From IMG/VR virus record IMGVR_UViG_3300020205_003247, positions 1 through 46,974 of that record: a DNA stretch of 46,974 nucleotides; one strand, 5' to 3'. The position numbers and the translations under genes were made by a program. The notes beneath the pieces are model-generated. The model had not been told where the DNA came from and made no database searches. It saw only the letters and a program-made list of their open reading frames with translations. Position 1 is the stretch's first letter, and every line of letters begins with the position of its first letter. Positions 3,462 to 46,974 of this stretch are shown here, piece by piece. The DNA comes from a virus.

Positions 3462-6400
3462 TTAAAACTCCGCATTTGCTGTTGCTTTTAACCCAGCGTT
3501 CCATAAGACATAAGCATTGTTGGCACCAACTGAGCCAAAGAAGTAAACAACACCATCAGTTGAAGCATTTGTTGCGTTTGAATTAGTATTACCCGTTTGA
3601 CTTGGCGTTGGAAGAACTACTGTAGGAGCAACTCTCATTTCACTCGGGAATCCAACATTTGAATAATATCCATAACCACCACTAGACGCATACCCTTCGG
3701 AGTTAAGCCTTCTTGCTTCAAAAACTGTGTAGTATCTCTGACACAACGATAGTTTTAAAGTATATGGTAATTGTTCAAAAGCAGTTGCTTGTGTATTTGC
3801 TTCTAACTGCACACCCGTAAATTGAAAATAGTTACTCGCAGAAGAAGCACCGTTGACAGTTAAACCAGCCGCACGATTAGCAACTGTTGCGCCAGACCCC
3901 CAAGACCCTGATGCTGTACCCGATGTGAATGTTGTTCCAGCAACAAGCCAAAAGAAAAGAGATAATGCGTTAGCGTTTGAGTTTGCAAAAGCACCTGTTG
4001 CGTCAGCAGGGAACTGAATTGTTTTGTATTCCCAAGTTGCAGAAGCATTGATTGTAAAAGTTTTTGTTACTTGACGACTGTTTGTGTTGTCGTAAAGTTC
4101 AGCAACATAAGTACCTGTTTGAAATGCTTTCACCCAAAAGGAAAGACTAAATGGTTTAGCACTAGCGGTACCTTTAGCAAATCGTTGAAGGTTTTGTCCT
4201 TCAATGTTTTGTCCCCAAATCAAATAGGAACCAGCGGATAAAGAAGCGTTGGCTGTTGTGCATTGAAACTTTATTGAATTACCAAACCCAGGAGGGGCAT
4301 CGGTTGATTGTGATTCTGTCCATGTGCCTGTTGTGCCATATGCAGACACAACACGGTCAAGAGTTCTGACCGTTTCACCGCTTGTAATGGTTGCTACCGA
4401 GGTTGAACGCTGGGCAATATTCATATCGCCGTTAATAAGTACATTTTTAAATCCAGTTGGCTGGTCAGCCCACGCTAAACCATTGGTAGCAGATGAGTTA
4501 GCCACAAGAATTTGAGTATCTGTACCTACTGGCAACTTGGCTACAACATCTGCTGTAGCACCTACAAGCAGGTCACCCTTAGCGTCAATGACTGTGTTAG
4601 TTGTGTCGTTAGCCCATGAAAGACCAGTAGCCGTGGATGAGTTAGCAATCAGTCGTTGAGTGTCCGTACCGACGGTTAGTCGTCCAAGTGCTTGAGATGC
4701 GGTACCGGCAAGAAGGTCTCCCTTTGCTTGAACCGTATTGATAACGGTTTCATAAGATGAGCCTGCACCAATTTCAATCCACGAAGAATCGTAGTAAATG
4801 TATGTGAGACCAGTGTCTGATTCAAACCACAGTTGTCCTGCTGCTGGAGACGCTGGGGGCGTGTCCGAGATAGCCATGTTTGGACCCGTAGGACCAGTTG
4901 CACCAGTATTGCCTTGCAATCCAGCAAGAGAAACTGTCGCCGAAGAAAAAGAACCTTCACCTGCTTCGTAAGCAGAAATTACGGTAAAGCCAGTATCTTG
5001 AGTAAGGGCTGTAATTTCACCAATGATGTATCCTGATGCGCCATTGACCTTTACATTGTTACCTAACGCAAACGCTCCTGTGTTGGCAGAAGTAAACACA
5101 TATGTTGACCCAGCGGTACCTGTAATGGCGGTCGCACTTGATGCCGTAATGCCAGCGTAACCACGACCTGCTGTTCCGCTTGCACCTGCTGTTCCGCTTG
5201 CACCTGCTGTTCCGCTTGCGCCTGTAGCCCCTGTTAAACCTGTCGGACCAGTCGCCCCTTCTGCTCCATTTGCTCCATTTGCGCCAGGTGCTCCGTTGGC
5301 ACCAGGGACTCCGTTAGCACCGGGAACTCCAGAAGGACCCGTAGCGCCAGTCGCGCCCTCTGTACCTGTAGCGCCAGTTGAACCTGTAGGTCCTGTTGCG
5401 CCCGTTACACCAGTCGGGCCAGTTGCGCCAGCCGCTCCTTCTGCACCAACAGGACCAGCAGGACCTTCTGCACCCACCAAACCTGTATCACCCGTATCAC
5501 CCTTGTCTCCGGTGCGAACGAAAGTAATAATTACATCTTGTCCAGATGTCCATGAAGGAGATGAGCCAGTTAGGTAAGAAACAGGAACTTTGTAATAAGT
5601 AGAAACAAGAGTGTGTGAACCTGTAATTGCATAGTAAACAAACTGCGCAGAGTTGCCAATTGCTTCTACTCTGAAATGACCTTTAACTGCGGATGTGGAG
5701 TCATCAATTGTATTTAAGTATGCAGTTATGTCGTTAGAACCAAAGTCAACTGGGTCAATGTACAAAAAAGTTGCAGTCGCTAATGCCGAGTCAAACTTCA
5801 AGTTTGTTGTGCCTGGGTCGGTATCTGCCGTGTTTGTTAGATAGTTATATGTAAAGGTTGCTCCGCCAAATGAACCTGTATCGCCTTTGATTCCAGTCGG
5901 ACCCGTTGCTCCTGTAAGACCCGTCGCGCCTGTTGCCCCTGTTGCGCCCGTAACTCCAGTCGGTCCTGTTACTCCGTCAACACCAATAGTTCCGTTAGTG
6001 CCCGATGCCCCCGTCGGACCAGTAGCACCCGTCAAGCCAGTAGCACCAGTCAATCCTGTTGCACCCGTCGGACCAGTCGGACCTAATGGTTGCGGACCAA
6101 CTTCAACCCAGTAAGAGTCGTAATAAACATAGGTAATCGCTGTAGTTGAATCAAACCAAAGGTCTCCTTGCGCTGGAGATGCTGGAGCAGTGTCGGAAAT
6201 GCTTACATACGCTACGCCTGTAGCCCCAGCGGGTCCTGTTGCGCCTGTTGGACCAGTTGAACCCGTCGCGCCAACCGCCCCCGCTGCACCACTTGCCCCT
6301 GTTGCGCCTGTTGGACCGGTCGGTCCTGTTACACCGTCAACACCGATGGTTCCGTTGGAGCCTGATGCGCCAGTAGCCCCTGTCAATCCCGTCGGACCAG

Positions 6401-7502
6401 TAGCACCAGTAGCACCAGTAGCACCCGTGTCACCTACATCACCAGTGCGAGCAAAAGTTACGAGAATGGCATCATTACTGGCAAAAGAACCATTACCAGA
6501 GATAAAGGAAACATTGATTTGAAACCAGTTTGGTGACTCATCAGAAATACTGTTGATGGCGTAAATGGCGAATATTGAACTGTCTGTTTTTAGAGAGACT
6601 TTTACATGCCCTTTTATGGTGCTTGTGGAATCATCAATCGTCTGTAAGAACGGAGACAAGTCATAGTTTCCGTCAGAGGGATTATCATCAATAGCGATAC
6701 TGGTGGCAGCATTGAGGCTGGCGTTATTGAAACGAAGTAAATCATCACCTGGGTCAGACATTGTGGTGGAAGTAGAAAAAGTGTATCCAAATGTTGCTCC
6801 ACCAAAACTTCCTTGAGGACCTGTTGCCCCAGTTGCACCAGTCGCACCAGTCAAACCCGTTGCACCCGCCGCACCCGATGCACCAATTCCAGTTGCACCA
6901 GTTGCACCCGTTACGCCCGTAGGACCGACAGGACCAGTCGGACCACTCGGTCCAAGAGGTTGTGTTCCGACTTCAACCCAAAAGGAATCGTAGTAAATAA
7001 AAGTTTTACCAGTATCGGACTCGAACCAAATTTGACCAGCAACAGGAGTGCTTGGGGCGGTGTCAGAGATTGTTGCCCCACCCGCAGCAGTAGCGTTTAC
7101 CCATGCGGTGCCGTTCCATTGCAGAACTTGATTGGTAGCGGCGCTGGTTACCGTTACATCAGTTAGGTCATCAAGAGACGCGACCGTAGACGCAGTGCCC
7201 GGAACAAACTTAGTTCCGTTGAATTTAAGTACTTGGTCGCCCGTAGCGCCAGTTGTGTCTACTTCTATGCCATCAATGAAAAGAACGGGGACTTTAAAAG
7301 TGTCATCTGTTCTTAGGACATTTGCTTCATCGCGATAAAGATTTGTGTCTCCAGTTGCTGACCCAGAAGCCCAAGTGATTCTTCCACCTGCATCAATACG
7401 AATTCGTGGATATGCATCAGTGCCAACACGAGCGGATACCGCTTCATCGCCAGCACTAGCGAACTCTGTTCCGCGTAGCGGCGTTCCTACAAATCTCGTC
7501 AT
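3462..7502 (-). CDS. Large collagen-like tail fibre
   Basis: 1346 residues, the main long fibre. Long Gly-X-Y tracts rich in [13 protein letters not shown] (roughly residues 180-230, 360-450, 490-560, 690-790) are expected to form collagen-like triple helices. They alternate with globular repeats: three copies of a module of about 40 residues (ISDTAPxxP...WFESDTG..YIYYDSxWVEVG), two copies of a module of about 115 residues starting GSFGGATF and containing TIDDSTS.(I/V)KGH, and two AKGDLLxG...LPVGTDTQ-type units before the tip. The C terminus carries the shared [16 protein letters not shown]...LCQRYY tip. The start at 7502 has GAGG about nine bases upstream. Gly tracts and repeats make the locus prone to recombination. 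Confidence 0.9.
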
Positions 7503-30643: not shown

Positions 30644-30820
30644 ATGGACATTTTCCGAAAATTTAAATATTCCCTTACCCGCCCTAACCTTGCAAACTGT
30701 TTGATGGTTTTATTCGTCGCAGGAATTTCGATAGGTACGGGTCTCATTTTCCCACCAGCAGGCTTAATCGCCTTCGGAGTAACCTGTGGAATCTATGGTT
30801 ACTTGTTGGGATCTGAATAA
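30644..30820 (+). CDS. Small membrane protein
   Basis: 58 residues (MDIFRKFKYSLTRPNLANC, then hydrophobic). Two predicted membrane segments: LMVLFVAGISIGTGLIF and LIAFGVTCGIYGYLLG. The start at 30644 is chosen because AAGG lies upstream; GTG at 30632 and ATG at 30635 are in-frame alternatives. Its stop overlaps the portal start as TAATG, so it is translationally coupled. Could be a membrane-acting accessory protein; function not recognised. Confidence 0.55.
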   Translation: MDIFRKFKYSLTRPNLANCLMVLFVAGISIGTGLIFPPAGLIAFGVTCGIYGYLLGSE

Positions 30821-33030
30821 TGGCTTGGAATAGCGAAAATAATAAAGATCTTAGAAACAGTGCTGAAAAAGCAATGTCCAACCCCGGTGCCCCTGTCGCT
30901 TTTGACATGGGACGAGTTGGTAAACCATATAAAGATGGATGGGACATTGACCGTGCGTACCGAGAAGGTATGCAAAAAGTTACTTGGGTGTTCCGTTGCA
31001 TAGATGCAATCGCGGGAAACCAAGCACGCCTTCCTATCATTCTGCGAAAAGGTAACGACCAGCGCGGAGAACAAACAAAAGACAACGAATCACTACTTGA
31101 GATTTTTAACTCGAAGTCAAATGACGGCGAAAACTCGTTCGCTTTCAGGTACAGGATTTCTGCTCAGTTATTGATGAGTACCCGAGGCGTCTTCATTGAA
31201 AAGGTTCGCTCCCGTGACGGCAAGATAATTGCGTTGCAACTTCTTCCGCCTCAGTACACAGCGCCAATCCCTGACAGCAAGAAGTTTGTTCAAGGATTTG
31301 AAGTTGACATGCGCAACGGAACGAAGTTTGTTTTAAAGCCAGAAGATGTTTGTTGGATACGCCGACCACACCCATTAGACCCATATCTCTCAATGACTCC
31401 TATGGAATCTGCTGGAATTGCAATTGAATTAGAGAACCTGTCCAAACTGTATAACCGCAACTACCTCATCAACGATGGTCGTCCGGGTGGCTTGCTTGTA
31501 GTTCGTGGCGACATGGAAGACGATGACAAGCAGGAACTAAAGAACCGATTCCGTGGAAACCTTTCGCGTGCTGGTTCAACAACAGTTCTTGCTTCATCAG
31601 ATGGCGTTGACTACATAGATACATCCGCCTCTCCAAGAGATGCCGCGTATACGCAAATGCGTGAACTCCAAAAGAATGAAATCTTCGCGGCTTTCGGTGT
31701 TCCTGAATCAGTAATTGGTAATGCGTCGGGAAGAACATTCTCGAACGCGTCAGAAGAGTTGCGTGTGTTTTGGATGGAGACGATGGCTCCTCATCTTCAT
31801 ACTCTTGCGCGAGCATTTGATGAACTTGACGATAAGTATTATGTCGACTTTGATACGGAAGACATTCCAATTCTCATTCTTGCAAAGCAGGAACGCGAAC
31901 GCTATGTGATGGACGAATTCCAACAGGGTCTAATTAGTCTCAACGAATACAGAACCGCAACAGGTCGCAAGAAGGTTGAATCGGAACTCGCAGACAGTCT
32001 TCTCTCTAATCCAAACCTCACTCCTATCGCCAACACAGAAAAGCCTTTCAAGCCTGAGGAGCAACAGCCTGTTGACATGGCAGGTGTTGACCCGAATGCA
32101 ATGCCTCAAGGTTTACCTCCGCAGGAAGGCGCAATGCAGGTTCCGCCTCCCGCCCCACCTTCAGAGATACAAATTCCTGATGCTCAAGCAGGTGTTGCCC
32201 CTGAAACAGCAACACTGACACCTGACCAACAGTTATCAGAGTTTGAAAAGATTCAGCATGAAATGCAGTTGAAGTTCGTACAAGAACTTGAAACCAAAGC
32301 AGACGCAGATACCGACAGGTGGACTGAAATACTTGACCGTGCGCTTGAGCGTGTGTTTGAAAGACAACAGCGTGTTGTTCTGGAAAAGGCTTTTGGTAAA
32401 CGGGGAATAAAGGCATTGTCCACAGGAGTCCTTACCGTGGATATGGTTTTTGACCAAGAGGTTTGGAACAAGCAACTCGCTGACGACCTAGAACCAATCA
32501 TTTTGGCAATCTATACAGAGGCTAAAGAATATGTTGCTTCTAGGACAAGTAGCAATGTGGTCATGGAACCGCAAGAAGTTGAGAAACTCGCCCAACAGCA
32601 GGTTGAGAGAATGCAAATGGCTAACGCCACAACTGCTGAAGAAATTGGAGCGGCTATAGCCGTTGCGTTGATGGAAGAAAGCGAAGAAGAGCGTTCCGTC
32701 CTTCTGCGCCTTGCACTAATAGCAATTTTCTTGAAACTTCTATCTAAGCGTCGCAGGGATATTGCCGAACATGAGGCTCAGGCTTCATACAACGGCGGAG
32801 TCTTCTTGGCTGGCAAGGAAAACAATGTTGGCTTGACAAAGACTTGGATTACCCGAAAAGACTCACGCGTACGCAGTACTCACAAGACACTAGAGGGCAA
32901 CACGGTTGATTTTGGTGACGGATTCTTGGTTGATGGTACGGTTTTGCGCTTTCCGGGCGACCCTGTAGCACCGCCTGCTCTGACATTCAACTGTCGTTGC
33001 CGTTTGCGTTTTGGCTTCAGCAAAGAGTAG
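30820..33030 (+). CDS. Portal protein fused to MuF-like head morphogenesis domain
   Basis: 736 residues. Residues 1-400 are an HK97-type portal: TWVFRCIDAIAGNQARLPI, LLMSTRGVFIEKVRSRDG, YNRNYLINDGRPGGLLVV, EIFAAFGVPESVIGN and a helical stem. A Pro/Gln-rich linker follows (about 410-470). The C-terminal part (from about 600) ends with KTWITRKDSRVRSTHKTLEG...LRFPGDPVAPPALTFNCRCRL, the signature of phage Mu gpF-like minor head proteins. Portal and MuF domain in one chain are seen in some phages. The portal ring is the DNA entry; the MuF domain lies inside the head. No frameshift was seen in the joint. Confidence 0.92.
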   Translation: MAWNSENNKDLRNSAEKAMSNPGAPVAFDMGRVGKPYKDGWDIDRAYREGMQKVTWVFRCIDAIAGNQARLPIILRKGNDQRGEQTKDNESLLEIFNSKSNDGENSFAFRYRISAQLLMSTRGVFIEKVRSRDGKIIALQLLPPQYTAPIPDSKKFVQGFEVDMRNGTKFVLKPEDVCWIRRPHPLDPYLSMTPMESAGIAIELENLSKLYNRNYLINDGRPGGLLVVRGDMEDDDKQELKNRFRGNLSRAGSTTVLASSDGVDYIDTSASPRDAAYTQMRELQKNEIFAAFGVPESVIGNASGRTFSNASEELRVFWMETMAPHLHTLARAFDELDDKYYVDFDTEDIPILILAKQERERYVMDEFQQGLISLNEYRTATGRKKVESELADSLLSNPNLTPIANTEKPFKPEEQQPVDMAGVDPNAMPQGLPPQEGAMQVPPPAPPSEIQIPDAQAGVAPETATLTPDQQLSEFEKIQHEMQLKFVQELETKADADTDRWTEILDRALERVFERQQRVVLEKAFGKRGIKALSTGVLTVDMVFDQEVWNKQLADDLEPIILAIYTEAKEYVASRTSSNVVMEPQEVEKLAQQQVERMQMANATTAEEIGAAIAVALMEESEEERSVLLRLALIAIFLKLLSKRRRDIAEHEAQASYNGGVFLAGKENNVGLTKTWITRKDSRVRSTHKTLEGNTVDFGDGFLVDGTVLRFPGDPVAPPALTFNCRCRLRFGFSKE

Positions 33031-33123: not shown

Positions 33124-35226
33124 ATGTCAAACACCGCAGTAGATTCTCAGCAATACAAAGCACTCCAAGGTCAGTTCAATATTGATGAAGCGCTTGGAGT
33201 TGTTGAATGCTTCGTTGCGGGTATTGGAAACAAGGACAGTGTTGGCGACATTATCGTGCCGGGCGCATTTACTGAGAGCCTTAAAAGGCGCAAACCTCGT
33301 GTTGTTTGGGGTCATAACTGGAATGAACCAATTGGAAAAGTACTTGAAATGTACGAAGTTCCACCATCTGACCCACGCCTTCCAATGAAAATGCGTGCCG
33401 CTGGTATTGGCGGACTGTACGCAAAAGTTCAATTTAATCTCAAATCCGAGCGAGGACGTCAGGCTTTCGCAGATGTTGCCTTCTTTGGTGAAGAGCAAGA
33501 GTGGTCAATTGGTTACAAAACCCTTGATGCGGATTTTGACCCACAACGCCAAGCAAATGTTCTTAAAAAGGTTGAACTATATGAGGCAAGTCCTGTTCTT
33601 CACGGTGCAAATCAATTAACTGGCACAATCTCAATCAAGTCCTTCGAGGGCAATGACTCAAAAGGTCAGATGCGCGACCAGAACGGCAATATCACCGAAG
33701 CGGGTCGCTCCCTTCTTGCACGCTTTATGGCAAGCAACATGCAACGCAATAAGCCACAAGTAGAGCAAGAAGAAGAGGAAGACGACGACGCCGTAGATGC
33801 ACCAATGCCGTCGCGTAGCCGTCAGGATAACCTGCCATACGCTCTCGCCAAGAAGTTTGGTGGAGCCGTAAAAATCAGGGAATCAGACTCAAACAGCGTA
33901 ATTTTTGACCATCGGGTAGAGGGTCAAGGCATCATGACGATGCGTGTTTCCTACCATTTTGAAAACAATCAATTTATGTTTGGCGACCCAACACGAGTGA
34001 AGCCACAAACTGTCTACATCAACGCTGATGGAGATAATTTGCCTAGTGGTTCTGATGCAGAGCGACGCTTTGAAGACCGTTACCGCCTTGATGCTGACCC
34101 GCAAGTGCCATTGGGCGTGAAACCAAAATCACCAGAAAAAGCAGACCCTCTTGGCGGAATCATTCCGCAAGAAATCGTCACAGCGCGTACCCGTGGATAC
34201 GGACCTCGCCGAGGGAACCTTGAAGAACTTCTTCGCTACTGGCGTCCAATTATGAAGAAACCCGGTGGTTTCCGTCGTTGTCGCGTAATTCTTGCTAACC
34301 ATCCTGAACTGTACCCATTGAGCAATATTTGCGCATGGTTGCATCACGAAACCACTGGTCTCTGGCCGAACGAAGGCTGTCACCACCCCGGCATGAAGAA
34401 TTGCCGTGGAAAACTACGCAAGTTGAATTGGGATGACAACGAATTCAATAACCGCCTTGGTGGAGTTCTCAAACCCGGAAAGTCACTTGAGACCATGACT
34501 GAAGATGAAATTAAGTCAGTATTTGACTTCCTTGATTCTGAGGAAAAGGGCTACGAGATGATGGAGGCTATGGCGAGTCGCTTGGCTGAGTCGGACGAGA
34601 CAGAAGAGACCATGAAGATGGAAGATGTTGAGTTTGAAAATGACGACGAAGCCGACGAGAAGGCATATGAGGCTTTGAAGCAATTCATGAATGCTGAGCC
34701 TGACTTCATTAATTACATGGCTGACAAGGACAACTGGGTCATGGAAGGCGATGATGACAACGGTGGCGTCATGGAAATGCCGTACTACAAAGGTTCTGAT
34801 GACGATGACTGTGGTTGTGGTGGCGGAGATAAAAATCCAAAGCAGATGATTGGCATGCTGATGGCTGCTATTTCAGAACTCATGGGCAAAGACGCTGATG
34901 AAGACATTGAGGTCAAGGCTGGTCGTGTTCTCAATTCACGGAACATGCTTAAAATTCAAAATGCTTTCAATCTTTTACAGGAAGTCCTTAGTGCGGGTGG
35001 TGTTGATTCTGATTTACAAGCGAAATCATTTGATTACACCGAGACTGAGACCATGACGATTTCCTCAGACAAGCGTTCGCTTTATGAATTGAAAGACCTT
35101 CTAAATCCAGTTTTGGATTACTACGAAATAAAGTCAGAAGTTACCGAAGAGGGAGTCAAGATTGATTTGACCGACCTTGAAGACGACGCCTTTGACGCTC
35201 TAATCAATGTGATGGATGTTCTGTAA
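33124..35226 (+). CDS. Prohead protease (U35/HK97 family) with long Cys/His-rich extension
   Basis: 700 residues, several times the usual size. The protease domain covers about residues 15-180: VECFVAGIGNKDSVGDIIVP, catalytic His64 in VVWGHNWNEPIG, Ser128 in EWSIGYKT, and LYEASPVLHGANQL. The middle region is acidic and Arg-rich. At about residues 380-432 a compact domain carries many Cys and His residues (RRCRVIL, NICAWLHHETTG, GCHHPGMKNC), consistent with zinc binding. The last 250 residues are acidic and helical, like an internal scaffold, with a DIEVKAGRVL site. The fusion of protease and scaffold in one chain is plausible (inference). Confidence 0.88.
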   Translation: MSNTAVDSQQYKALQGQFNIDEALGVVECFVAGIGNKDSVGDIIVPGAFTESLKRRKPRVVWGHNWNEPIGKVLEMYEVPPSDPRLPMKMRAAGIGGLYAKVQFNLKSERGRQAFADVAFFGEEQEWSIGYKTLDADFDPQRQANVLKKVELYEASPVLHGANQLTGTISIKSFEGNDSKGQMRDQNGNITEAGRSLLARFMASNMQRNKPQVEQEEEEDDDAVDAPMPSRSRQDNLPYALAKKFGGAVKIRESDSNSVIFDHRVEGQGIMTMRVSYHFENNQFMFGDPTRVKPQTVYINADGDNLPSGSDAERRFEDRYRLDADPQVPLGVKPKSPEKADPLGGIIPQEIVTARTRGYGPRRGNLEELLRYWRPIMKKPGGFRRCRVILANHPELYPLSNICAWLHHETTGLWPNEGCHHPGMKNCRGKLRKLNWDDNEFNNRLGGVLKPGKSLETMTEDEIKSVFDFLDSEEKGYEMMEAMASRLAESDETEETMKMEDVEFENDDEADEKAYEALKQFMNAEPDFINYMADKDNWVMEGDDDNGGVMEMPYYKGSDDDDCGCGGGDKNPKQMIGMLMAAISELMGKDADEDIEVKAGRVLNSRNMLKIQNAFNLLQEVLSAGGVDSDLQAKSFDYTETETMTISSDKRSLYELKDLLNPVLDYYEIKSEVTEEGVKIDLTDLEDDAFDALINVMDVL

Positions 35227-37032: not shown

Positions 37033-37044
37033 TTGGAGGAGACG

Positions 37045-38955
37045 ATGATTAAGTCGTCTCGTGCTTTCGACGCAAACGAGAGGTTTTTTGAGTATCTAAA
37101 CTCGGTCTCCGTCGTTCAACAAAATGTCTTATTGTTCAAGGGGTTTCTCGGACCGACCATTAAAGACAATGATGGTTTGCAAACAGTTGGAGTACGCGCC
37201 GCCCGTGCCGCTGGTGTCATCGTTGACTCTTCAGGAAAACTTCGCTGTCCACCCGGCACTCCCAATGCCAATCAATTTACCGACTTGCAAATGTCTAATT
37301 GCATGGTTCCAAGTGCGGAGACTGCTGCACGCGCTGTTGCGGAGGCTGTCTCAGGTGTTGCAGAAAACATTGACCGTGCTATTGGAAAACTTAGTGACGC
37401 TTCGGATTTGGCTGAACTTCCAAAAGCAGACCATGCAACATCTGCGCAAATTAGAGAGTTTAATGCCAAAATGCTCGCCATGGCTCCGAAATGGGGTCGC
37501 GTTGACGACGAGTACATCAAAAAGGTAAATGATACTGGTTACTACTCGACAGCAATTTTGACTCTGGAAGAACGGCAGACGTTACGCAAGGATAAGATGG
37601 CGGAAAAGATTTCCAACCTTCGACGCATGATTGAATCAGGCGCACAGACGAATGAATCGGGATTTCCGCTTGGCAGGGTTATAGACCCTAAAACGCATGA
37701 ATTTATTCTTACGCATACTGACGAAGAAGTAATTGAAGCAATAGAACAGACTGCCTTAATAATTGCAAAAGCACGCAAACCCGAAGCATCCGTATGGGCT
37801 AAAGGAGAGCACCTAGAAGCATATTTGACAGATGGCTATCGCCCAATGACGGAAGGTGCAGCCGATGCCAAGGTTGGTGAAGCCATGACGTCCCTACTTG
37901 GCAACCGTGGGAAATTTGAAGCAAGTGTTGGAGCGGAACATGGTTCTGGTGTTCGTCCAGTGTACGGCTTTAGTCGCTTCACTTTCTGGGATGATGAGTT
38001 AAAACGAATCACGGATGAGAAAAACCTAAAAGAGGGTGCAGATTTATTCAGCACAGACCACTACTTAACCATTCCCGGCAAAGGTGCAGGTGGAATTGCT
38101 GGCTATGAAGGCGCATTCGCTGGTGACGCAATCGGCTACGGAGATATGGAATTTGTACTTCACGCAGAGGTAGCAGACAGAACAGTGATACATCACAGAG
38201 ATAGCATTCTCAATCAAGCAAGAGGTGCTGCGGCGGTTGGTGCATCAGACGAGGATTTAATTGAAGCAATTACTGGTCACTTGACCACCAGCGACATGGA
38301 TGACAATATCAATCGTCTGTTGCGAACCCATGTTACGCAGGATTTTGTTAATTGGACTAGGTCGTCAGCCAACAACGAAGAGAACATGAACACAAACGGT
38401 CAATATACGGAATCAAATATTCTTGGAGGATTCTCTGTTGAAGACATTAAAGAAATTAAATTTGATGCAGTTAGACTGTTCCCAAAACATAAAGACCAGT
38501 TTAACCCTGACGGGGTTGATGGTACGGAACTGATTCAAAAAATTGAAGACCAGCATCTTTCTACGGAACAGTTACTTGCGGAAGGTTTCACAATAGGTGA
38601 GATAGAAGTTGTACGCGCAAAAATTGCAAGTTGGAAAACAAAAAACGCTGCACCTAAGAGTGTGAAGGAGTTTCAAGCAATAGGTTACAACCCCAATCTT
38701 GATGGACTCATTGGGGCAATGGAGATGGAACGCATCAGTTCATTGGTTGCCGAAAAGGCTCCACACGCTAAAGTTATTTTTGGTTCTCCTGATGGTCTCG
38801 ACTTAGGCGACCCTACAAAATACGACGGCGGTAAAGCAGGCGACCGTATTACTGATATTTGGGGTAGTCGCCTACGTAAGAAGTTGTTGGAAGAGACTCG
38901 TCAGGAAATCAAGTATGCGTCCAGCCCATCCGACCCAAGTGAATCAGTGGCATGA
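37045..38955 (+). CDS. Large virion-associated protein with CPxG-FTD-C module
   Basis: 636 residues from the ATG at 37045, chosen for GGAGG about six bases upstream; the frame also has TTG at 37033. Near the N terminus NVLLFKGFLG (residues 27-36) is followed by RCPPGTP...FTD...NC with Cys68 and Cys86, the module shared with three further proteins downstream. The middle is helical. At about residues 275-390 the sequence GYRPMTEGAADAKVGEAM, SGVRPVYGFSRFTFWDDE and YGDMEFVLHAEVADRTVIHH forms a globular domain that resembles, weakly, DUF3626-type or toxin-like enzymes. No catalytic triad can be assigned. Likely virion-packaged. Confidence 0.6.
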   Translation: MIKSSRAFDANERFFEYLNSVSVVQQNVLLFKGFLGPTIKDNDGLQTVGVRAARAAGVIVDSSGKLRCPPGTPNANQFTDLQMSNCMVPSAETAARAVAEAVSGVAENIDRAIGKLSDASDLAELPKADHATSAQIREFNAKMLAMAPKWGRVDDEYIKKVNDTGYYSTAILTLEERQTLRKDKMAEKISNLRRMIESGAQTNESGFPLGRVIDPKTHEFILTHTDEEVIEAIEQTALIIAKARKPEASVWAKGEHLEAYLTDGYRPMTEGAADAKVGEAMTSLLGNRGKFEASVGAEHGSGVRPVYGFSRFTFWDDELKRITDEKNLKEGADLFSTDHYLTIPGKGAGGIAGYEGAFAGDAIGYGDMEFVLHAEVADRTVIHHRDSILNQARGAAAVGASDEDLIEAITGHLTTSDMDDNINRLLRTHVTQDFVNWTRSSANNEENMNTNGQYTESNILGGFSVEDIKEIKFDAVRLFPKHKDQFNPDGVDGTELIQKIEDQHLSTEQLLAEGFTIGEIEVVRAKIASWKTKNAAPKSVKEFQAIGYNPNLDGLIGAMEMERISSLVAEKAPHAKVIFGSPDGLDLGDPTKYDGGKAGDRITDIWGSRLRKKLLEETRQEIKYASSPSDPSESVA

Positions 38956-39380: not shown

Positions 39381-39628
39381 GGTATGCGTTAGTTGCACCT
39401 TGCACGAATATCTCAGGGACGCCTTATGTTGCCTTCAAGGGTAATGTACCCATTGGGAAAAGCCTTCAAAAAGACACCCCTAAAATGTCCTATTATAGTA
39501 TTAGTACCAATATTTTAGATACAGACAATATTGAACTCTTACGTGTGCTAGCAAAAAAATGGAAAGCCACTTTACCAGCGGAATTCGCTGAAACAGAACA
39601 AACGAAAGAACCAACAAAAGATGAGTGA
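39377..39628 (+). CDS. Hypothetical small protein
   Basis: 83 residues with MRYALVAPCTNISGTPYVAF at the start, a central YYSISTNILDTDNIELLRVL, and an acidic tail. It overlaps the previous gene by ATGA and the next by eight bases. No recognised family. The tight overlaps indicate a co-translated group with 38952..39380 and 39621..41294. Confidence 0.45.
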   Translation: MRYALVAPCTNISGTPYVAFKGNVPIGKSLQKDTPKMSYYSISTNILDTDNIELLRVLAKKWKATLPAEFAETEQTKEPTKDE

Positions 39629-41294
39629 ATCATTTAACCAAAATTTTGATATTTTTGCTCGGCGTTTTCGTGTTGCTTTGCGTGAAAAAACATTGATGAA
39701 GCGCACTAACCTTTTGCTTGATCAAGAGATTTACTTCAACCCTGAACAATCTAAGCAGAATTTCATCTTCAAGAGTGGTTCAGATATTAGAAAAGTTCCG
39801 CTAAACGGAAACAGAGAACTTTTGAACTTTAAGGCAACGCTTTACCTCAAAACGCGAGTTTCTCGTCTTGGTTCAGAGACCTTCGTTGGAGACGAAACAA
39901 AGCGTGGCGGTCTTGGGAAATGGTTTGATGAAGAGTGGGTGGACATCTCTCGCCCCAAAAAGGGTGGCGGTTTTGAACCATGTGGACGCTCAGATGCGGA
40001 TTCAGGGAAATACCCTAAGTGTGTAAAGAAATCTGTCGCCATGCGTATGACTGCTGAGGAAATTGATTCTGCCGTGCGGAGAAAGCGTCGCGCTGAAACA
40101 TCAGAAGTTCGTGACGAGAACAAGCCAATAAATGTGACTACATTTAAGAGTGAGAATGTTCCTACGGATACGGAACTTTATGCTCGCGTCAAAGACGAAG
40201 CGAAAAAGAAATTTAATGTTTACCCATCCGCATATGCCAATGCTTGGCTCGTTCGTGAATACAAAAAACGAGGCGGTGGCTATCGTGTTGAAAAAGACGC
40301 TGAAGAAGATGTTGAGATAAAAGCAGGCTTAATTGGTTCTAGCAATCCTGCTGGTCGTGCCCTACAGGCGGTTGGTTCGGCTATCACGCCGGGGAACGTT
40401 TCAAGCATTACTTCGCCAATCCGTTCCCGTGTGTACGGTGCTCTTGTTCCCGGCGGTGGCGGTGGCGCTTTAAGCCGACTGAAGCCAAACCGCAAAAGGC
40501 AAGCACGGTGCCCTGCTGGATTTGAATATGGTGGAAGATTCACCGACAATCGCTTCTCAACCTGTGGTGCCCAACTCTTTGAAATACCAGGACCTTTAGC
40601 ACTTATCGGACGGGCGGTTCGTGGCGCAATGAACCTTGGTACAGCACGAGCCGAGAACCTTTCAGAAGTCCTAGAAGGAAACCCAAGCAACGCTAGAACT
40701 ATTCAGATTCAACGAATGGCTCAAATCCCAAGAACAGGTGCTTTCAATAAGAGCAAGTTTGACACTGCCGTAAAAGATTCAATCACGCTCCTCAAAGGTG
40801 CACAACGCGGTGAAGGCAGAATGATTCGCAGAGACGGAGTAATCCTGCGTCCTGTTGTTGCATCTTCCGTTCTGCGGTCATTCAGCGAGAACCCTGACAT
40901 GGTTGAAGGTGCGATGATACGAGCAATTCAGTTGCCCGAGGACATTACATCAGACGATTTAGCACTACTTGGTGGAGCATCTATGAGCAAAATTGCTTTC
41001 GTCGCACCAAACGGTGTTGTTGTCAGTCTTGAACGGTCACGACCTTTTACCGTTGGTGAGAAGCGAAAGTTCCCACGCATGATTAATGCCCTCGCTGAAT
41101 CAAGCACAAAAGACAACATCATTAAAAACATTGAGGATTTCGCTACCAACTCTGACGGTGCGTTCAAATACTCAACAGAGTTTGGAAGTGTTTCTGATGC
41201 GCTTGAGATGGTGACATACACGGGGACTGATGGTGTTGAACGAACGGCACCTCGCTGGATTTATGAAACCTTTATCAAGAAGAATTTGAAATAA
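39621..41294 (+). CDS. DUF5872-like and CPxG-FTD-C module protein
   Basis: 557 residues. Near residues 94-160 is a DUF5872-like basic Cys region: RGGLGKWFDEEWVDISRPKK, PCGRSDADSGKYPKCVKKS and RMTAEEIDSAVRRKRRAE. At about residues 197-222 YPSAYANAWLVREYKKRGGG follows, a small repeat known from phages and large DNA viruses. Then comes ARCPAGFEYGGRFTDNRFS with Cys297 and Cys315 in the shared module. The C-terminal 150 residues are globular with a SLERSRPFTVGEKRKFPRM region. Putative DNA- or virion-binding role; function unknown. Confidence 0.7.
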   Translation: MSESFNQNFDIFARRFRVALREKTLMKRTNLLLDQEIYFNPEQSKQNFIFKSGSDIRKVPLNGNRELLNFKATLYLKTRVSRLGSETFVGDETKRGGLGKWFDEEWVDISRPKKGGGFEPCGRSDADSGKYPKCVKKSVAMRMTAEEIDSAVRRKRRAETSEVRDENKPINVTTFKSENVPTDTELYARVKDEAKKKFNVYPSAYANAWLVREYKKRGGGYRVEKDAEEDVEIKAGLIGSSNPAGRALQAVGSAITPGNVSSITSPIRSRVYGALVPGGGGGALSRLKPNRKRQARCPAGFEYGGRFTDNRFSTCGAQLFEIPGPLALIGRAVRGAMNLGTARAENLSEVLEGNPSNARTIQIQRMAQIPRTGAFNKSKFDTAVKDSITLLKGAQRGEGRMIRRDGVILRPVVASSVLRSFSENPDMVEGAMIRAIQLPEDITSDDLALLGGASMSKIAFVAPNGVVVSLERSRPFTVGEKRKFPRMINALAESSTKDNIIKNIEDFATNSDGAFKYSTEFGSVSDALEMVTYTGTDGVERTAPRWIYETFIKKNLK

Positions 41295-41320: not shown

Positions 41321-41419
41321 ATGTCCTTATTAGTGATACCATTTTCATATAGCAATATCGCCGTTGGCAAAGGCGGAGAACAGAAGTCTTCTTCGTATTC
41401 CTTGGAAAGCACCCAATGA
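41321..41419 (+). CDS. Possible 32-residue leader peptide gene
   Basis: ATG at 41321 opens a 32-codon frame (MSLLVIPFSYSNIAVGKGG, then EQKSSSYSLESTQ) ending in TGA that overlaps the kinase-like gene start as ATGA. No clear ribosome site. It could be a leader or coupling peptide, or chance. The rest of the gap 41295-41320 is AT-rich and shows nothing clear. Confidence 0.3.
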   Translation: MSLLVIPFSYSNIAVGKGGEQKSSSYSLESTQ

Positions 41420-44400
41420 AATTAGTTTTCATTATAAAAAATCGTGACAACTCACCCTTTATGGTGGTCTCAACGACCCCTGAAGGGACAAAGTTTCAGC
41501 CAATGACGGAACCTGCCAAGGAACTTGCCGTCTTTTTGCGTCAAGAGTATTCAAAAACCAAAATTACTAAAGCGGAATTAGAACAAGTAGTTGATTCTTC
41601 TAAAATAATTGAAGGTCCAAGCCCTGACAGTTCAGCAACATCTAAAAAAGTTGCTCTACTTAATGAAGAGCCACAATATTCTCAGGAATTAGTAACCTTG
41701 CCTGTTCTATCAATTTCAGAAGTTCTTCTTTCGGAATTTTCTAATGCCGAATACAGGAATGTTCTAACCTTCAAAGCGTCTTCTTTCATATCAGACCAAA
41801 CACGGTCTTCGGCAAACTTTGAAGTCAAGGCTGTTCGTGCGATATGGGATCCGAGCCTCTCTATCCCCGGCACAAATCGCCGTGGCGGGTTTCGTTGCCC
41901 AGTCGGAACTCGATATGGCGGACAAATCACAGACCGCTTTGGTCGCTCCTGTGGATGGGGTGTGGCAAGGCGTATTGCTAACCAAATAGCAGACATTGGT
42001 GAGCGTCTAGAACAACGAGATGACGGTAAGCGCAAGCGTCGCCTTGACCGTCGCAATGCACGAATGATTGCACGCCTACAGGGTGGAGAGCGGGCTGGTC
42101 GTCTTGAGGGTGGATTAAGAGACATTGCGCAAAGACTTGACGGTGGTGGTGGTGCGCCAAGAGCGCCACGCCCACAGAGAGAAATAGATCCCGTCCGTGA
42201 AGCGAATCGTCAAGAAGCATTAGCGGAATTGCGAAGAGTCCGTGATGACGTTGTTATGCCAAGAGTTCCAAGACGAAGGGGTAGGCAAGCACCAAGAGAC
42301 GAAGAAGTAGAAACTCCATCTGCACGCCCAACTCGCAACAGACGCCGTGATGTGATTCCTGAAACAGCGCCAACTCCAAAGCCAAGACCAAGACCTGTAC
42401 CACAGGGTGGAGTTCGCCCTACGCCGGGCGGTTTGCCATCCCTTCCCGACTACAGACCAAATGACCCTGTTGGTAATCGTCAAAGGTATCTCGCTGAGGC
42501 TATACAACGACTCGCTAAGGATAAGCGCGACGCAAAGCGCAATCGCCCTGATGGTGTTTCAAACGAAAACTGGAAAAAATACAAAGACTACGTTGATTCC
42601 CTTGAACATGTGTTTGGTTATGGAGGCAATGACCGTTTTGCATCTGTTATGTCATATGACGAGTGGGCACGCAGGAACAATGCAACTCCTCGCGCACCAC
42701 AGGCTCCTTCAGATGCTCCCGCTCGCCCACAGCCACGCCCACGAGCAATCCCACAACCAGAAGATGTTGATGTACTAACAGCCCGAGAGGCTTCCGACGC
42801 AGGCGAATCTGAAGCGTTCAAACCATATGTTCTTCGTAAATACAACGAGTACGCACAGCGTGTTCGTGAGATTCGTGAAGGCGGTGGCAATGCAGGAATG
42901 CTTACACGACGCGAGTGGTATGCGATAAATAAAGACAACCTTCGTGATGCGTGGAAAGATGTTCATGGTCGTAGTGCTCCACAGGACTTTGAACCACCAG
43001 CACCACGGCGTCCACAAAACAATCGTCGCCGTCGTCGCGCCGCTACAGCAGTGCCAGCAGGTCGTAGCGCATCACGCAAACCAACACCCGATGACGTTCC
43101 CGAGCCAGCACCAGCACGACCAGTAAGACCGGCTCGGAAGCCATTCAACGCTCCCGGTCAGCGCGGGCAAGTTAGTTTGCTGGACGCACTGCGCAAACGC
43201 AATGAAATGCGAAGAGGCGGTGCACAAGATGAAGACTTGAAGATAGTGCTTCACAACGGCAAGCATTATGTTGTAAAAAAGGCAGAAATAGATAGGGCTA
43301 ATGCAAATGGTGCAAATATTGTAGCCCTGCCAGAGCCTCCACAACCTCCACCACGCCCTCCTGCTAGACCAGCAGTAGTTCAGCCGATTACTCCACCTCC
43401 TGCGGTAGGTCCAACGAACCTGCCTCCTAATGCTCCACCCGCCCCACCAAGAGCACCACGACCACAGATACCAATGGGACAAGAAGAGCGCTCACCAATA
43501 CGACCATTCGCTCGTAAGGAAAATGCTCACGGCGTTCTTCCTGTTGAGCGTGGAAATGGTGGTCTTGGAAAATGGGTGGACAAAGAAGACAAGACGATAG
43601 ACACTCAACAAAAAGCAATTGAACATATTAAAAACGGTGGAGATTTTGAAAAAGTTCCGGCGAAGTTCATGTTTGAGGCTTTGTTTCAAAATTCGTCAGC
43701 GGACGAGACAGATTTGAATGCGAGATACAGGAGAATAACACCGTCGGGTGGAATCATTGGATTTACTCAACTCTTTTTCGTGCGAGGAAAAGATGGAAAG
43801 AAGAGTAACCAAGGCTGGGTTTTGAAAGCCGCCTCAGACAAAGATAATGCTGGCGAGTTGGTTGGATGGAACTATCTTGCTGAAGTAGGAGTCCTAGGAG
43901 ATGGTGCCATCGCCGATGGGCGTCTAGAAGCAACACCTGAACTAGTACGGGATCTTGGGGCATATGGAGCCAGGGCGACACGGAGTGCGGGGGCACAGTT
44001 TGTTGTCACGCCGTTGGCTTTTAATGATGTTCCAAATGACCACGCAGTCGGTCCTGACGGAGGTCGTCCCAATAGCGACTTTGTTCTTGCCCAACTACAA
44101 GCAACAACAGATCGTGGTCTCCCAGCGCGATTAGCAAACCTTATGACAAATTATATTCTTGGTGTCAGCGACAGGCATACGGGTAACGGCATGGGACGTA
44201 GTGTCACTGCGCCAGATGGTAAAAAAACAGCGCTTGTGGTTCCACTTGACCTTGGTTGGGCAGGACAATTACATGGCAGTTCGTTCTCCTCGTACAAACA
44301 AGGTTTCTCTATGGATCCGAACATGATGGATAATGCTTCGCGAGAACTGCAACTAATAGGTGATGTTGCTGTTCGTAAGCAGGCATACGAAGCAATGGTG

Positions 44401-44610
44401 CAAACATTCGATGATATTGTAAGCAAAACAGAAAGAGTCTTGGGCGTTGGACGAGACGAGTTCATTGCAGATGCACTAAAGAATCAGAACCGCAACGCTA
44501 CGAATGTAGCGAGAATGGGGAAACTTTATGATGGAATGCAAGACCATTTAAGCAAACTGCGGAATCAACGAGCCAAAATTGTTGCACTCCTACCAGTAGA
44601 CCAGAGGTAA
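41416..44610 (+). CDS. CPxG-module protein with C-terminal PI3/PI4-kinase-like domain
   Basis: 1064 residues. N terminus: MKLVFIIKNRDNSPFMVVS, then NVLTFKA (about 115-121), FEVKAVRAIWDPSLS (135-149) and the shared module FRCPVGTRYGGQITDRFG with Cys161 and Cys179. Residues 230-720 are a long Pro/Arg-rich linker with small globular islands. The last 330 residues hold a kinase domain: GWVLKAAS with candidate ATP lysine K804, GELVGW with E814, the catalytic loop NYILGVSDRHTGNG with D919 and N924, and the metal-binding DLG at D945. The DRHxxN...DLG arrangement is that of PI3/PI4-type kinases and their phage/large-virus relatives. Probably virion-packaged and ejected (inference). Confidence 0.8.
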   Translation: MKLVFIIKNRDNSPFMVVSTTPEGTKFQPMTEPAKELAVFLRQEYSKTKITKAELEQVVDSSKIIEGPSPDSSATSKKVALLNEEPQYSQELVTLPVLSISEVLLSEFSNAEYRNVLTFKASSFISDQTRSSANFEVKAVRAIWDPSLSIPGTNRRGGFRCPVGTRYGGQITDRFGRSCGWGVARRIANQIADIGERLEQRDDGKRKRRLDRRNARMIARLQGGERAGRLEGGLRDIAQRLDGGGGAPRAPRPQREIDPVREANRQEALAELRRVRDDVVMPRVPRRRGRQAPRDEEVETPSARPTRNRRRDVIPETAPTPKPRPRPVPQGGVRPTPGGLPSLPDYRPNDPVGNRQRYLAEAIQRLAKDKRDAKRNRPDGVSNENWKKYKDYVDSLEHVFGYGGNDRFASVMSYDEWARRNNATPRAPQAPSDAPARPQPRPRAIPQPEDVDVLTAREASDAGESEAFKPYVLRKYNEYAQRVREIREGGGNAGMLTRREWYAINKDNLRDAWKDVHGRSAPQDFEPPAPRRPQNNRRRRRAATAVPAGRSASRKPTPDDVPEPAPARPVRPARKPFNAPGQRGQVSLLDALRKRNEMRRGGAQDEDLKIVLHNGKHYVVKKAEIDRANANGANIVALPEPPQPPPRPPARPAVVQPITPPPAVGPTNLPPNAPPAPPRAPRPQIPMGQEERSPIRPFARKENAHGVLPVERGNGGLGKWVDKEDKTIDTQQKAIEHIKNGGDFEKVPAKFMFEALFQNSSADETDLNARYRRITPSGGIIGFTQLFFVRGKDGKKSNQGWVLKAASDKDNAGELVGWNYLAEVGVLGDGAIADGRLEATPELVRDLGAYGARATRSAGAQFVVTPLAFNDVPNDHAVGPDGGRPNSDFVLAQLQATTDRGLPARLANLMTNYILGVSDRHTGNGMGRSVTAPDGKKTALVVPLDLGWAGQLHGSSFSSYKQGFSMDPNMMDNASRELQLIGDVAVRKQAYEAMVQTFDDIVSKTERVLGVGRDEFIADALKNQNRNATNVARMGKLYDGMQDHLSKLRNQRAKIVALLPVDQR

Positions 44611-44928: not shown

Positions 44929-46974
44929 ATGCTTAATAATGTTGTTGACTTTAAAGCCAAATCTTTCCTTAGTGAACAAAATACGTCAACTATGGCGTAT
45001 GAAGTAAAGGCTGTTCGTGCTATTTGGGACCCAAGTCTTTCTATTCCGGGAACTAACCGTCGTGGTGGTTTTCGTTGTCCAGTGGGAACACGATACGGTG
45101 GGCAAATAACCGACAGGTTTGGTCGTTCATGCGGTTGGGGCGTAGCACGCCGAATTGCAAACCAAATTGCTGACATTGGGGAAAGATTTGAAAACATTGA
45201 CGATGCTCGTAGGGGTCGTCGTATTGCTCGCCGTGAACGTAGGATTCTTGAGCGTTTAAACCCTGAAGGTGGTGGCACGGGTCGTCTTGAAAGAGGCTTG
45301 CGTGGCGTGGCGGAAAGGCTAGATGGTGGAGATGCTCCGTCTCCTGCTCCTCGCGGTGCAAGGCGTCGTACTGTCACGCCTCGTCCACCATCTGTTGATG
45401 CACCCGATGCTGAACAAACACCCGACGCACCTCGTGCTCCACGGAGAAGGCGTGCACCAAATCTTCGCGACTCGGAGCAACGACGCATGGATAGGGAAAT
45501 TGAACAGCCGGGCGCACCGAGAACTGACGAAGCGCCTGCTCGCCCAAGACGACCTGTCAAACCGCGAGGCGAAGGCAACTTGCGTGATTCTGAACAGCGA
45601 CGCATGGAGAGAGAAATCAACGAACCAGGTGCACCTAGAACAGATGAAGCACCTGCTCGCCGTCGTCGTCGTGCTGTTGTTGAAACTGCAAAACCACCCA
45701 AACCACAACAAGAACAGGCAAAGAAGCCAAAGCCAATTGTTGAACCAAAAGTCGTCAAACCACGCCGACCTAAACCAATGGACGTCAACGAAAGCGATCC
45801 AGATGAACGCTCCGAACGAAATGTCAGAAACCGTTTTCGTCAACGAGGTTTGCCTAATGATGCATATTGGAGAAAGCCAGAATATGCAGGCGAAGATAAG
45901 AATGAATTAGAGAGACGATTTGGTCGCTACTACTCCGAAGACAATAGACGGAACGCACGCGGTAATTTAGTAAATGAAAGAATTGCAAGAGGCGAGGGTG
46001 ATGCAAACCGTATTGCCGCAGACATCATAAGGGCATTTGGCGAGAACAATCTTCCCCTTAGGCAAGTTGAATTTGATGATATTGCAGGTCCGGGAAATAG
46101 TGATAACGCGGCTCGTTCAGCAGAAGTGCGGGCAGAAGCGGCTCGTCAGGCTGATGCCATTTTGGCTGATGCTGATAGAGAGCGTGCTTTTGAGCAAGAT
46201 CAACCTGACGCTTTCCTTGAAGCATTCATGCCTCCCGATTTAAGAAATCTTTCATTGGATGAGGAAAGAGAGTTCCGTGAACAGTGGAGAGAAGAACAGA
46301 ACGGAATTGAAGATATCTTCCGAAACTTTGACGGACGGATAGCCGACGGAGACTTCGGTACCGCCGAAACCTTACGTGAACGCATTCGGATAAATAATGA
46401 TGAAATTGGATTCGCCAACGACCGTCTTGAAAGGGATTTGGAGAGATTAAGAGAACTAGAAGGTTCTATAACCGTGGCTCAGATGCGGGCTAGATCTCAA
46501 GTCAGAAGAGAGGCGCTTGCGCGAATTGCTGTTAATGCGCAAGATAGGCGTCGCAGGCAACTTGAAAACAAGAAATTTCAAGAAGCGATAGACGAGGCAG
46601 ACAAAAAGCCAAAAACACCAAAACCCAAAGTGGTAAAAAAACGCGCTATCAATCTCAACGACGCACTAAGAGACGACACTTTCGTTGAGCGCATAAACAG
46701 AGATGTTTTAGGTAAGCGCCTAGAGATTTTGAATGACCCTAAAAACTTTACTGGTGCTAACGACCGAGATGCTGAAGCAAAAAAACAATCTGCTTTGCGT
46801 GTCGCAGAAACAAACATAATCGCGCTTACTGCTCGTCTTGAGCGTATTCAGCAAGCACAAGACAGAGGAGACATAAGTCCTCTTGATGTCGTGCGTGGCG
46901 CGAACAGAGAAATCAATGTCCGTGAACTGAAGGAAGAAATTGAATCAGTAATTGACGCGTGGGGTGATGTTGTA
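44929..46974 (+). CDS. CPxG-module protein, long helical tail (runs off right edge)
   Basis: 682 codons are open from the ATG at 44929 to the window edge. The N terminus has VVDFKAKSF (5-13), YEVKAVRAIWDPSLS (24-38) and the shared module FRCPVGTRYGGQITDRFG with Cys50 and Cys68, nearly identical over about 60 residues to the same stretch of 41416..44610. Then follow Arg-rich helix, a Pro/Arg linker with two 40-residue repeats (NLRDSEQRRMDRE and NLRDSEQRRMERE) and long charged coiled-coil-like helices to the edge. The C-terminal domain, probably the effector part, is not in view. Confidence 0.75.
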   Translation, partial: MLNNVVDFKAKSFLSEQNTSTMAYEVKAVRAIWDPSLSIPGTNRRGGFRCPVGTRYGGQITDRFGRSCGWGVARRIANQIADIGERFENIDDARRGRRIARRERRILERLNPEGGGTGRLERGLRGVAERLDGGDAPSPAPRGARRRTVTPRPPSVDAPDAEQTPDAPRAPRRRRAPNLRDSEQRRMDREIEQPGAPRTDEAPARPRRPVKPRGEGNLRDSEQRRMEREINEPGAPRTDEAPARRRRRAVVETAKPPKPQQEQAKKPKPIVEPKVVKPRRPKPMDVNESDPDERSERNVRNRFRQRGLPNDAYWRKPEYAGEDKNELERRFGRYYSEDNRRNARGNLVNERIARGEGDANRIAADIIRAFGENNLPLRQVEFDDIAGPGNSDNAARSAEVRAEAARQADAILADADRERAFEQDQPDAFLEAFMPPDLRNLSLDEEREFREQWREEQNGIEDIFRNFDGRIADGDFGTAETLRERIRINNDEIGFANDRLERDLERLRELEGSITVAQMRARSQVRREALARIAVNAQDRRRRQLENKKFQEAIDEADKKPKTPKPKVVKKRAINLNDALRDDTFVERINRDVLGKRLEILNDPKNFTGANDRDAEAKKQSALRVAETNIIALTARLERIQQAQDRGDISPLDVVRGANREINVRELKEEIESVIDAWGDVV
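45466..45665 (+). repeat. Two in-frame 120-base repeats
   Basis: Within the right-edge gene, NLRDSEQRRMDREIEQPGAP and NLRDSEQRRMEREINEPGAP lie 40 residues apart, and both continue with RTDEAPAR. The protein repeat is strongly kept while third positions differ, so the duplication is old and selected for sequence. Could be a binding repeat. Confidence 0.65.

What the first reader, a model, noticed from the sequence alone, without database searches (positions are those of the whole stretch)
43798..44265. PI3/PI4-kinase-like catalytic domain at the end of a phage virion-region protein
Seen: a candidate ATP lysine in GWVLKAAS, GELVGW with a helix-C-like Glu, the loop GVSDRHTGNG and, 20 residues later, PLDLGWAG. 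Known: DRHxxN plus a DFG-like DLG is the catalytic signature of PI3/PI4-type and related atypical kinases. Inference: encoded among portal, protease and other virion-type genes and carrying a shared N-terminal module, it may be packaged and injected to phosphorylate a host lipid, protein or nucleotide early in infection.
Basis: partly seen in the sequence, partly recalled or inferred. Interest (0 to 1): 0.75.

Follow-up and report, generated by a model that had tools for sequence, protein, structure and literature searches.

The report
Swappable kinases in actinophage head-gene cluster
The gene ends in a genuine kinase domain of the PI3/PI4-kinase type, and it belongs to a large, previously uncharacterised set of phage proteins that keep the same front end but swap very different kinase ends, encoded among the head-building genes of lake phages that probably infect actinobacteria and perhaps delivered into the host with the DNA.

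Summary
ORF 41416-44610 (1064 aa) ends in an atypical kinase domain (about residues 714-1046). Pfam PF00454 alone is sub-threshold (E 0.05). However, 58 non-redundant homologous domains from related IMG/VR contigs keep K804 (56/56), E814 (57/57), D919 (55/57), R920, N924 and D945 (57/57 each). A profile of the family hits FAM20, PI4KB, PI3K and mTOR in PDB at 1e-5 to 5e-4. AlphaFold gives pLDDT 89 and pTM 0.89; the best Foldseek hits in PDB are PI3K, VPS34 and ATM. Related phages carry one to three such kinases, only 14-26% identical within a contig, behind N-terminal Cys modules that can be 99-100% identical while the kinases are about 20% identical: a polymorphic-effector pattern. In a relative where I checked, the genes lie between prohead protease and major capsid protein; WhiB genes in 12 of 15 contigs point to actinobacterial hosts. 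Most likely these are head-packaged, injected effectors that phosphorylate host targets, analogous in delivery to T4 Alt and the polyvalent proteins. Kinase fold: about 0.95. Packaging and injection: about 0.6, inferred. Substrate: unknown; lipid kinase activity is not shown.

The parts
41416..44610 (+). kinase-bearing effector gene, 1064 aa
   Evidence: open frame with RBS-like GGAAAG; orthologue in L002 with the C-terminal 335 aa 76% identical
41815..42036 (+). N-terminal Cys module (VRAIWDPSLSIPGTNRRGGFRCPVGTRYGGQITDRFGRSCGWG), shared with the next large ORF and with about 50 viral contigs
42037..43554 (+). Pro/Arg-rich low-complexity linker with small embedded segments
   Evidence: translation
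43555..44607 (+). PI3/PI4-kinase-like catalytic domain and C-terminal helices (residues 714-1064)
   Evidence: AlphaFold pLDDT 89.1, pTM 0.89; Foldseek PI3Kgamma, VPS34, ATM; family alignment A4
43825..43827 (+). codon K804, beta-3 ATP lysine
   Evidence: 56/56 homologues; in predicted strand 83-93 of the model
43855..43857 (+). codon E814, helix-C glutamate
   Evidence: 57/57 homologues; in predicted helix 95-110
44170..44187 (+). catalytic loop D919-R-H-T-G-N924
   Evidence: D 55/57, R 57/57, H 53/57, N 57/57
44248..44250 (+). codon D945, DFG-like metal-binding aspartate (PLDLGWAG)
   Evidence: 57/57 homologues
30820..33030 (+). portal protein fused to a MuF-like domain
   Evidence: phrog_2662 4.6e-97; PF04860 1.9e-48; PF04233 5.7e-7
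33124..35226 (+). prohead protease (Peptidase_S78)
   Evidence: phrog_80 2.6e-30; PF04586 3.4e-11
37033..38955 (+). slot-1 paralogue: N-terminal module RCPPGTPNANQFTDLQMSNC with a non-kinase C-terminus here; the same module carries a kinase in L002 and others
   Evidence: structure prediction of its C-terminus failed (pLDDT 37.5)
39621..41294 (+). neighbour with DUF5872 and a third variant of the Cys module (RCPAGFEYGGRFTDNRFSTCG)
   Evidence: PF19197 1.2e-14; module match by hhalign
44929..46974 (+). third gene with the same Cys module, runs off the contig end

Best explanation
The C-terminus is a catalytically intact atypical kinase of the PI3/PI4-kinase-like group. It is one of many interchangeable C-terminal effector domains attached to a conserved N-terminal Cys module in a family of contractile-tailed phages that probably infect actinobacteria. 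The gene lies in the head-assembly cluster, so the module probably sorts the protein into the prohead. The protein would then enter the host with the DNA, and the kinase would phosphorylate one or more host components early in infection, for instance to disable a defence or redirect metabolism. Shown: predicted kinase fold, conserved active site, module sharing, domain swapping, genomic setting. Inferred: packaging, injection, early action. Unknown: the substrate; a protein substrate is guessed as more likely than a lipid, because paralogues in one phage are so divergent and FAM20/HipA-like matches are about as strong as lipid-kinase ones.
For: Active-site residues conserved in 58 non-redundant domains, tested without a motif filter. 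Predicted structure pLDDT 89.1, pTM 0.89; PDB Foldseek hits PI3Kgamma 7.8e-4, VPS34 8e-4 (prob 1.00), ATM 9e-4; viral library hit 'Phosphatidylinositol 3-/4-kinase catalytic domain' of an uncultured phage 2.4e-10. Profile against PDB: FAM20 1e-5, PI4KB 4e-5, PI4KA and PI3Kalpha 3e-4, mTOR 5e-4. Domain swapping: in slot 2b, 46 of 69 protein pairs with modules at least 90% identical have kinases under 30% identical, down to 99% vs 19%. Slot 1 carries kinases, DUF3626 or other ends. 26 of 28 related contigs have at least one match; within-contig kinases are 14-26% identical. Setting: portal-MuF, protease, effectors, major capsid protein. WhiB in 12 of 15 contigs.
Against: No virion proteomics or activity data. 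The window's own PF00454 score is below the curated cut-off, and TM-scores to PDB kinases are modest (at most 0.41). Some relatives have split or ERDxxN copies, so not every member need be active. No sorting signal of this sequence is known to me. A late head-operon position also fits a role in assembly rather than injection.
Confidence: 0.62

Rival explanations
1. The kinase is a virion-assembly enzyme: made late, it phosphorylates phage head proteins or scaffold and is never meant for the host cell.
For: Encoded between prohead protease and major capsid genes.
Against: Structural roles are usually conserved, whereas the C-termini are swapped for very different kinase types or other domains under near-identical modules; two of 28 contigs have no match, though contigs are fragments.
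Confidence: 0.12
2. It is a lipid kinase acting on phosphatidylinositol of the actinobacterial membrane.
For: Best fold matches are PI3K/VPS34, and PI4K/PI3K are among the best sequence matches; hosts are probably actinobacteria, which are known to make phosphatidylinositol (background knowledge).
Against: FAM20 (protein kinase), HipA and mTOR/ATM match about as well; residues defining lipid specificity cannot be aligned with confidence at about 12% identity.
Confidence: 0.12
3. Trojan-horse effector aimed at eukaryotic grazers that swallow infected bacteria, as proposed for ADP-ribosyltransferases of freshwater phages (PMC6802176).
For: Probable actinophages of lakes; phosphoinositide signalling is a eukaryotic target; one member weakly matches the Rickettsia PI3-kinase effector Risk1 (E 0.007).
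Against: No secretion or uptake domain seen; position in the head cluster suggests delivery into bacteria.
Confidence: 0.06
4. The similarity is a short chance or convergent motif and the domain is not a kinase.
For: Window copy alone is sub-threshold in Pfam.
Against: Searches exclude this for practical purposes.
Confidence: 0.03

Closest known systems
PI3/PI4 kinase family (PF00454), incl. VPS34, PI4KB, PIKKs
   Same: beta-3 Lys, helix-C Glu, DRHxxN loop and following DFG-like Asp; best fold matches
   Different: about 12% identity; window copy below the Pfam cut-off; phage fusion to a Cys module; substrate unknown
FAM20-type, HipA and HipA-like kinases (PF06702, PF20613)
   Same: Related atypical kinase core; FAM20 is the top PDB profile hit, HipA_2 matches 17 of 51 members weakly, Shewanella HipA structures among the fold hits
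   Different: Weak scores; no HipB-type partner was looked for
Phage polyvalent proteins, MuF toxins and T4 Alt (PMC5512222)
   Same: Proteins encoded with head genes, interchangeable enzymatic domains, proposed injection
   Different: The kinases described there belong to the Ser/Thr/Tyr superfamily and lack the C-terminal subdomain; here PI3/PI4-like kinases keep helices after the active site and share a Cys module not found in 50,697 phage records
Uncultured Caudovirales protein A0A6J5MJB0, annotated PI 3-/4-kinase
   Same: Best fold match in the viral library (E 2.4e-10)
   Different: Annotation only; I found no paper on it in the library searched
Staphylococcus phage 52A 'phosphatidylinositol kinase'
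   Same: Weak match to a paralogue of this family (E 5e-4)
   Different: DRNxxN loop; lies between endolysin and integrase, not in the head cluster, as a single short gene
PADLOC candidate PDC-M03A; SCO1664 family TIGR03843
   Same: PDC-M03A matches up to 18 of 51 members, best 4e-7; TIGR03843 8 of 51, best 6e-4
   Different: Other contexts, without (as far as known to me) the virion module; the window copy itself matches neither at E<=0.01

Membership tests
PI3/PI4 kinase (PF00454) | Profile score over the curated cut-off (27.1 bits) | tested here: not met
   Window copy 14 bits; a relative, L032 slot 1, reaches 27.2; best member E 7.1e-9
PI3/PI4 kinase (PF00454) | DRHxxN catalytic loop plus DFG-like Asp | tested here: met
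PI3/PI4 kinase (PF00454) | beta-3 Lys and helix-C Glu | tested here: met
   K804 56/56, E814 57/57, in the predicted strand and helix
PI3/PI4 kinase (PF00454) | PI3K-type kinase fold | tested here: met
   Foldseek PI3K/VPS34/ATM fill ranks 1-18, E 8e-4 to 1e-2, though TM-scores are only up to 0.41
PI3/PI4 kinase (PF00454) | Phosphoinositide substrate | not testable with these tools
   needs biochemistry
Polymorphic or polyvalent phage effectors | Conserved N-terminus with interchangeable C-terminal domains | tested here: met
   (99-100% module identity with about 20% kinase identity)
Polymorphic or polyvalent phage effectors | Encoded with head or packaging genes | tested here: met
Polymorphic or polyvalent phage effectors | Present in virion and delivered | not testable with these tools
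   needs proteomics and infection assays
Polyvalent-protein kinase group (PMC5512222) | Loss of the C-terminal kinase subdomain | tested here: not met
   model keeps about 110 residues, mostly helices, after D945
HipA | HipA profile match | tested here: inconclusive
   HipA_2 in 17/51 members, best 1.2e-4, not in the window copy
HipA | HipB antitoxin partner | not tested
   not looked for

The most novel reading that the evidence does not exclude
These actinophages carry a virion-borne set of two or three divergent PI3/PI4-type kinases per particle, sorted by the RCPxG...TD...C module, which together re-phosphorylate the host (proteins or its phosphatidylinositol) before any phage gene is expressed. 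That would be a delivered kinome with a new packaging signal.
Probability: 0.3. Interest if true: 0.85.

Novelty: new variant of a known kind. Interest (0 to 1): 0.66.

Why it matters
Kinases of the PI3/PI4 type are best known from eukaryotes. A family of some 58 distinct phage versions, nearly all with an intact active site and mounted on an interchangeable chassis among head genes of environmental phages, would point to phosphorylation as a delivered weapon of phages and offer a possible packaging tag, new kinases and new host targets to test.

Tried and rejected
Single-sequence phmmer against PDB gave only chance hits. The window kinase, two paralogues and the module are absent from 50,697 phage records at the thresholds used. 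The module was not found in GTDB genomes. I suspected that the window's slot-1 C-terminus is an ADP-ribosyltransferase, from a remembered motif; Pfam and phage searches found nothing and the model failed (pLDDT 37.5), so I do not claim it. The chance-motif reading was rejected. Literature searches found no paper on this family in the library held. The kinase tree is a quick one with long branches; I draw nothing from it beyond the window kinase grouping with L002, L021 and L023.

Full report
Observation. On its own the domain is a weak Pfam case (PF00454, E 0.05 for the C-terminal part, 14 bits against a cut-off of 27.1), and a single-sequence search of PDB finds only chance hits. The test therefore needed relatives.

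Relatives. The kinase domain alone found one close relative, L002 (76% identical over the C-terminal 335 aa). L002 also revealed a second, different kinase upstream, fused to the N-terminal module that in the window (37033-38955) carries a non-kinase end. Searching with the two N-terminal modules gave 51 and 32 loci, and these are full of kinase-like ends.

Kinase evidence. In 51 aligned domains, 11-76% identical to the window's, exactly seven columns are invariant: K804, E814, D919, R920, H921, N924 and D945. Because these sequences were picked partly by a DRHxxN/D motif, I repeated the search with the profile alone. In 58 non-redundant domains K, E, R, N and the second D never vary where present, D919 is E in two, and H921 varies in four. 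K804 and E814 were never used for selection. The family profile reaches FAM20 (1e-5), PI4KB (4e-5), PI4KA and PI3Kalpha (3e-4) and mTOR (5e-4) in PDB, aligned on the catalytic loop. PF00454 is found in 41 of 51 members, HipA_2 in 17 and Fam20C in 8. AlphaFold with this alignment gives pLDDT 89.1 and pTM 0.89, with K804 in a strand, E814 in the next helix, and the catalytic loop and D945 either side of a strand pair. Foldseek's best PDB hits are PI3Kgamma, VPS34 and ATM, with HipA lower down; TM-scores are modest (at most 0.41), so the domain is a distant relative, not a close one. The best viral hit is an uncultured phage protein annotated as PI 3-/4-kinase.

Setting. The window is an IMG/VR virus record of 46,974 bases, apparently part of a contractile-tailed phage: tail fibres, baseplate wedge, tail sheath and terminase on the minus strand, then portal-MuF and prohead protease on the plus strand. 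In the longer relative G006 the order runs portal, protease, slot-1 gene, DUF5872 gene, two kinase genes, a third module gene, a 468-aa protein, then the major capsid protein (phrog_10, 2.9e-66). WhiB genes above the curated cut-off in 12 of 15 contigs point to actinobacterial hosts, by the criterion used for freshwater actinophages in PMC6802176. The window itself has no WhiB hit.

Polymorphism. Of 69 pairs of slot-2b proteins with modules at least 90% identical, 46 have kinase domains under 30% identical; examples are 99% against 19% and 100% against 22%. In slot 1, the same module type is followed by kinases, DUF3626, or other ends. Kinases within one contig are only 14-26% identical, and 26 of 28 contigs searched have at least one match, up to three separate genes. 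Three kinds of neighbouring gene share an RCPxG...TD...C core (hhalign E-values 3e-6 for slot 1 against slots 2/3, 7e-7 for slots 2/3 against the DUF5872 gene, 4e-5 for slot 1 against the DUF5872 gene; these are pairwise values, not database searches).

Mechanism. The pattern of a constant front, a swapped enzymatic end and a place among head genes is that of phage effectors thought to be packaged and injected (T4 Alt, MuF fusions, polyvalent proteins; PMC5512222). I therefore infer that the Cys module sorts the protein into the head and that the kinase acts on host molecules early in infection. Packaging, injection and timing are inferences. Protein, lipid or nucleotide substrate cannot be decided here; similarity to FAM20/HipA/PIKK is as good as to lipid kinases.

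Relation to known systems. The kinases of polyvalent proteins described so far are a different group lacking the C-terminal subdomain. PI-kinase-like phage genes have been annotated singly, and relatives occur in the PADLOC candidate PDC-M03A and TIGR03843. I found no description of this module-kinase family in the papers searched, which is a limited library. I rate it a new variant of a known kind.

Noticed in passing
window 37033-38955: Slot-1 paralogue with a C-terminus of unknown function conserved at 75-83% in six other loci, one of them with a long insertion after the module; suspected but unproven ADP-ribosyltransferase.
   Followed up: partly
window 39621-41294; L045, L046, L049, L050, L051: DUF5872/Cys-module protein; longer homologues end in a degenerate kinase-like domain (DRSPAT instead of DRHxxN), possibly a pseudokinase.
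   Followed up: partly
L030:1819-4901; also L020, L070, L071, L080: Slot-1 kinase split over two ORFs (775 and 253 aa), with ERDxxN in place of DRHxxN; a decayed or split kinase.
   Followed up: no
L054, L055: Very long (1786+ and 2097 aa) module proteins with a DRTPGN catalytic loop.
   Followed up: no
L042:1325-4930: Slot-1 protein with an HEGAH metallopeptidase-like and a ParB-like (DGYIIDGHHR) stretch instead of a kinase, read by eye.
   Followed up: no
window 39621-41294, residues 54-222: DUF5872 region is shared with Pelagibacter, Roseobacter and Synechococcus phages.
   Followed up: no
window 3462-7502: 1346-aa tail fibre with several repeated and collagen-like stretches matching 33 PHROG families.
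   Followed up: no
A4 members: Kinase domains match the PADLOC phage-defence candidate PDC-M03A (best 4e-7), so related kinases may sit on the host's side too.
   Followed up: no
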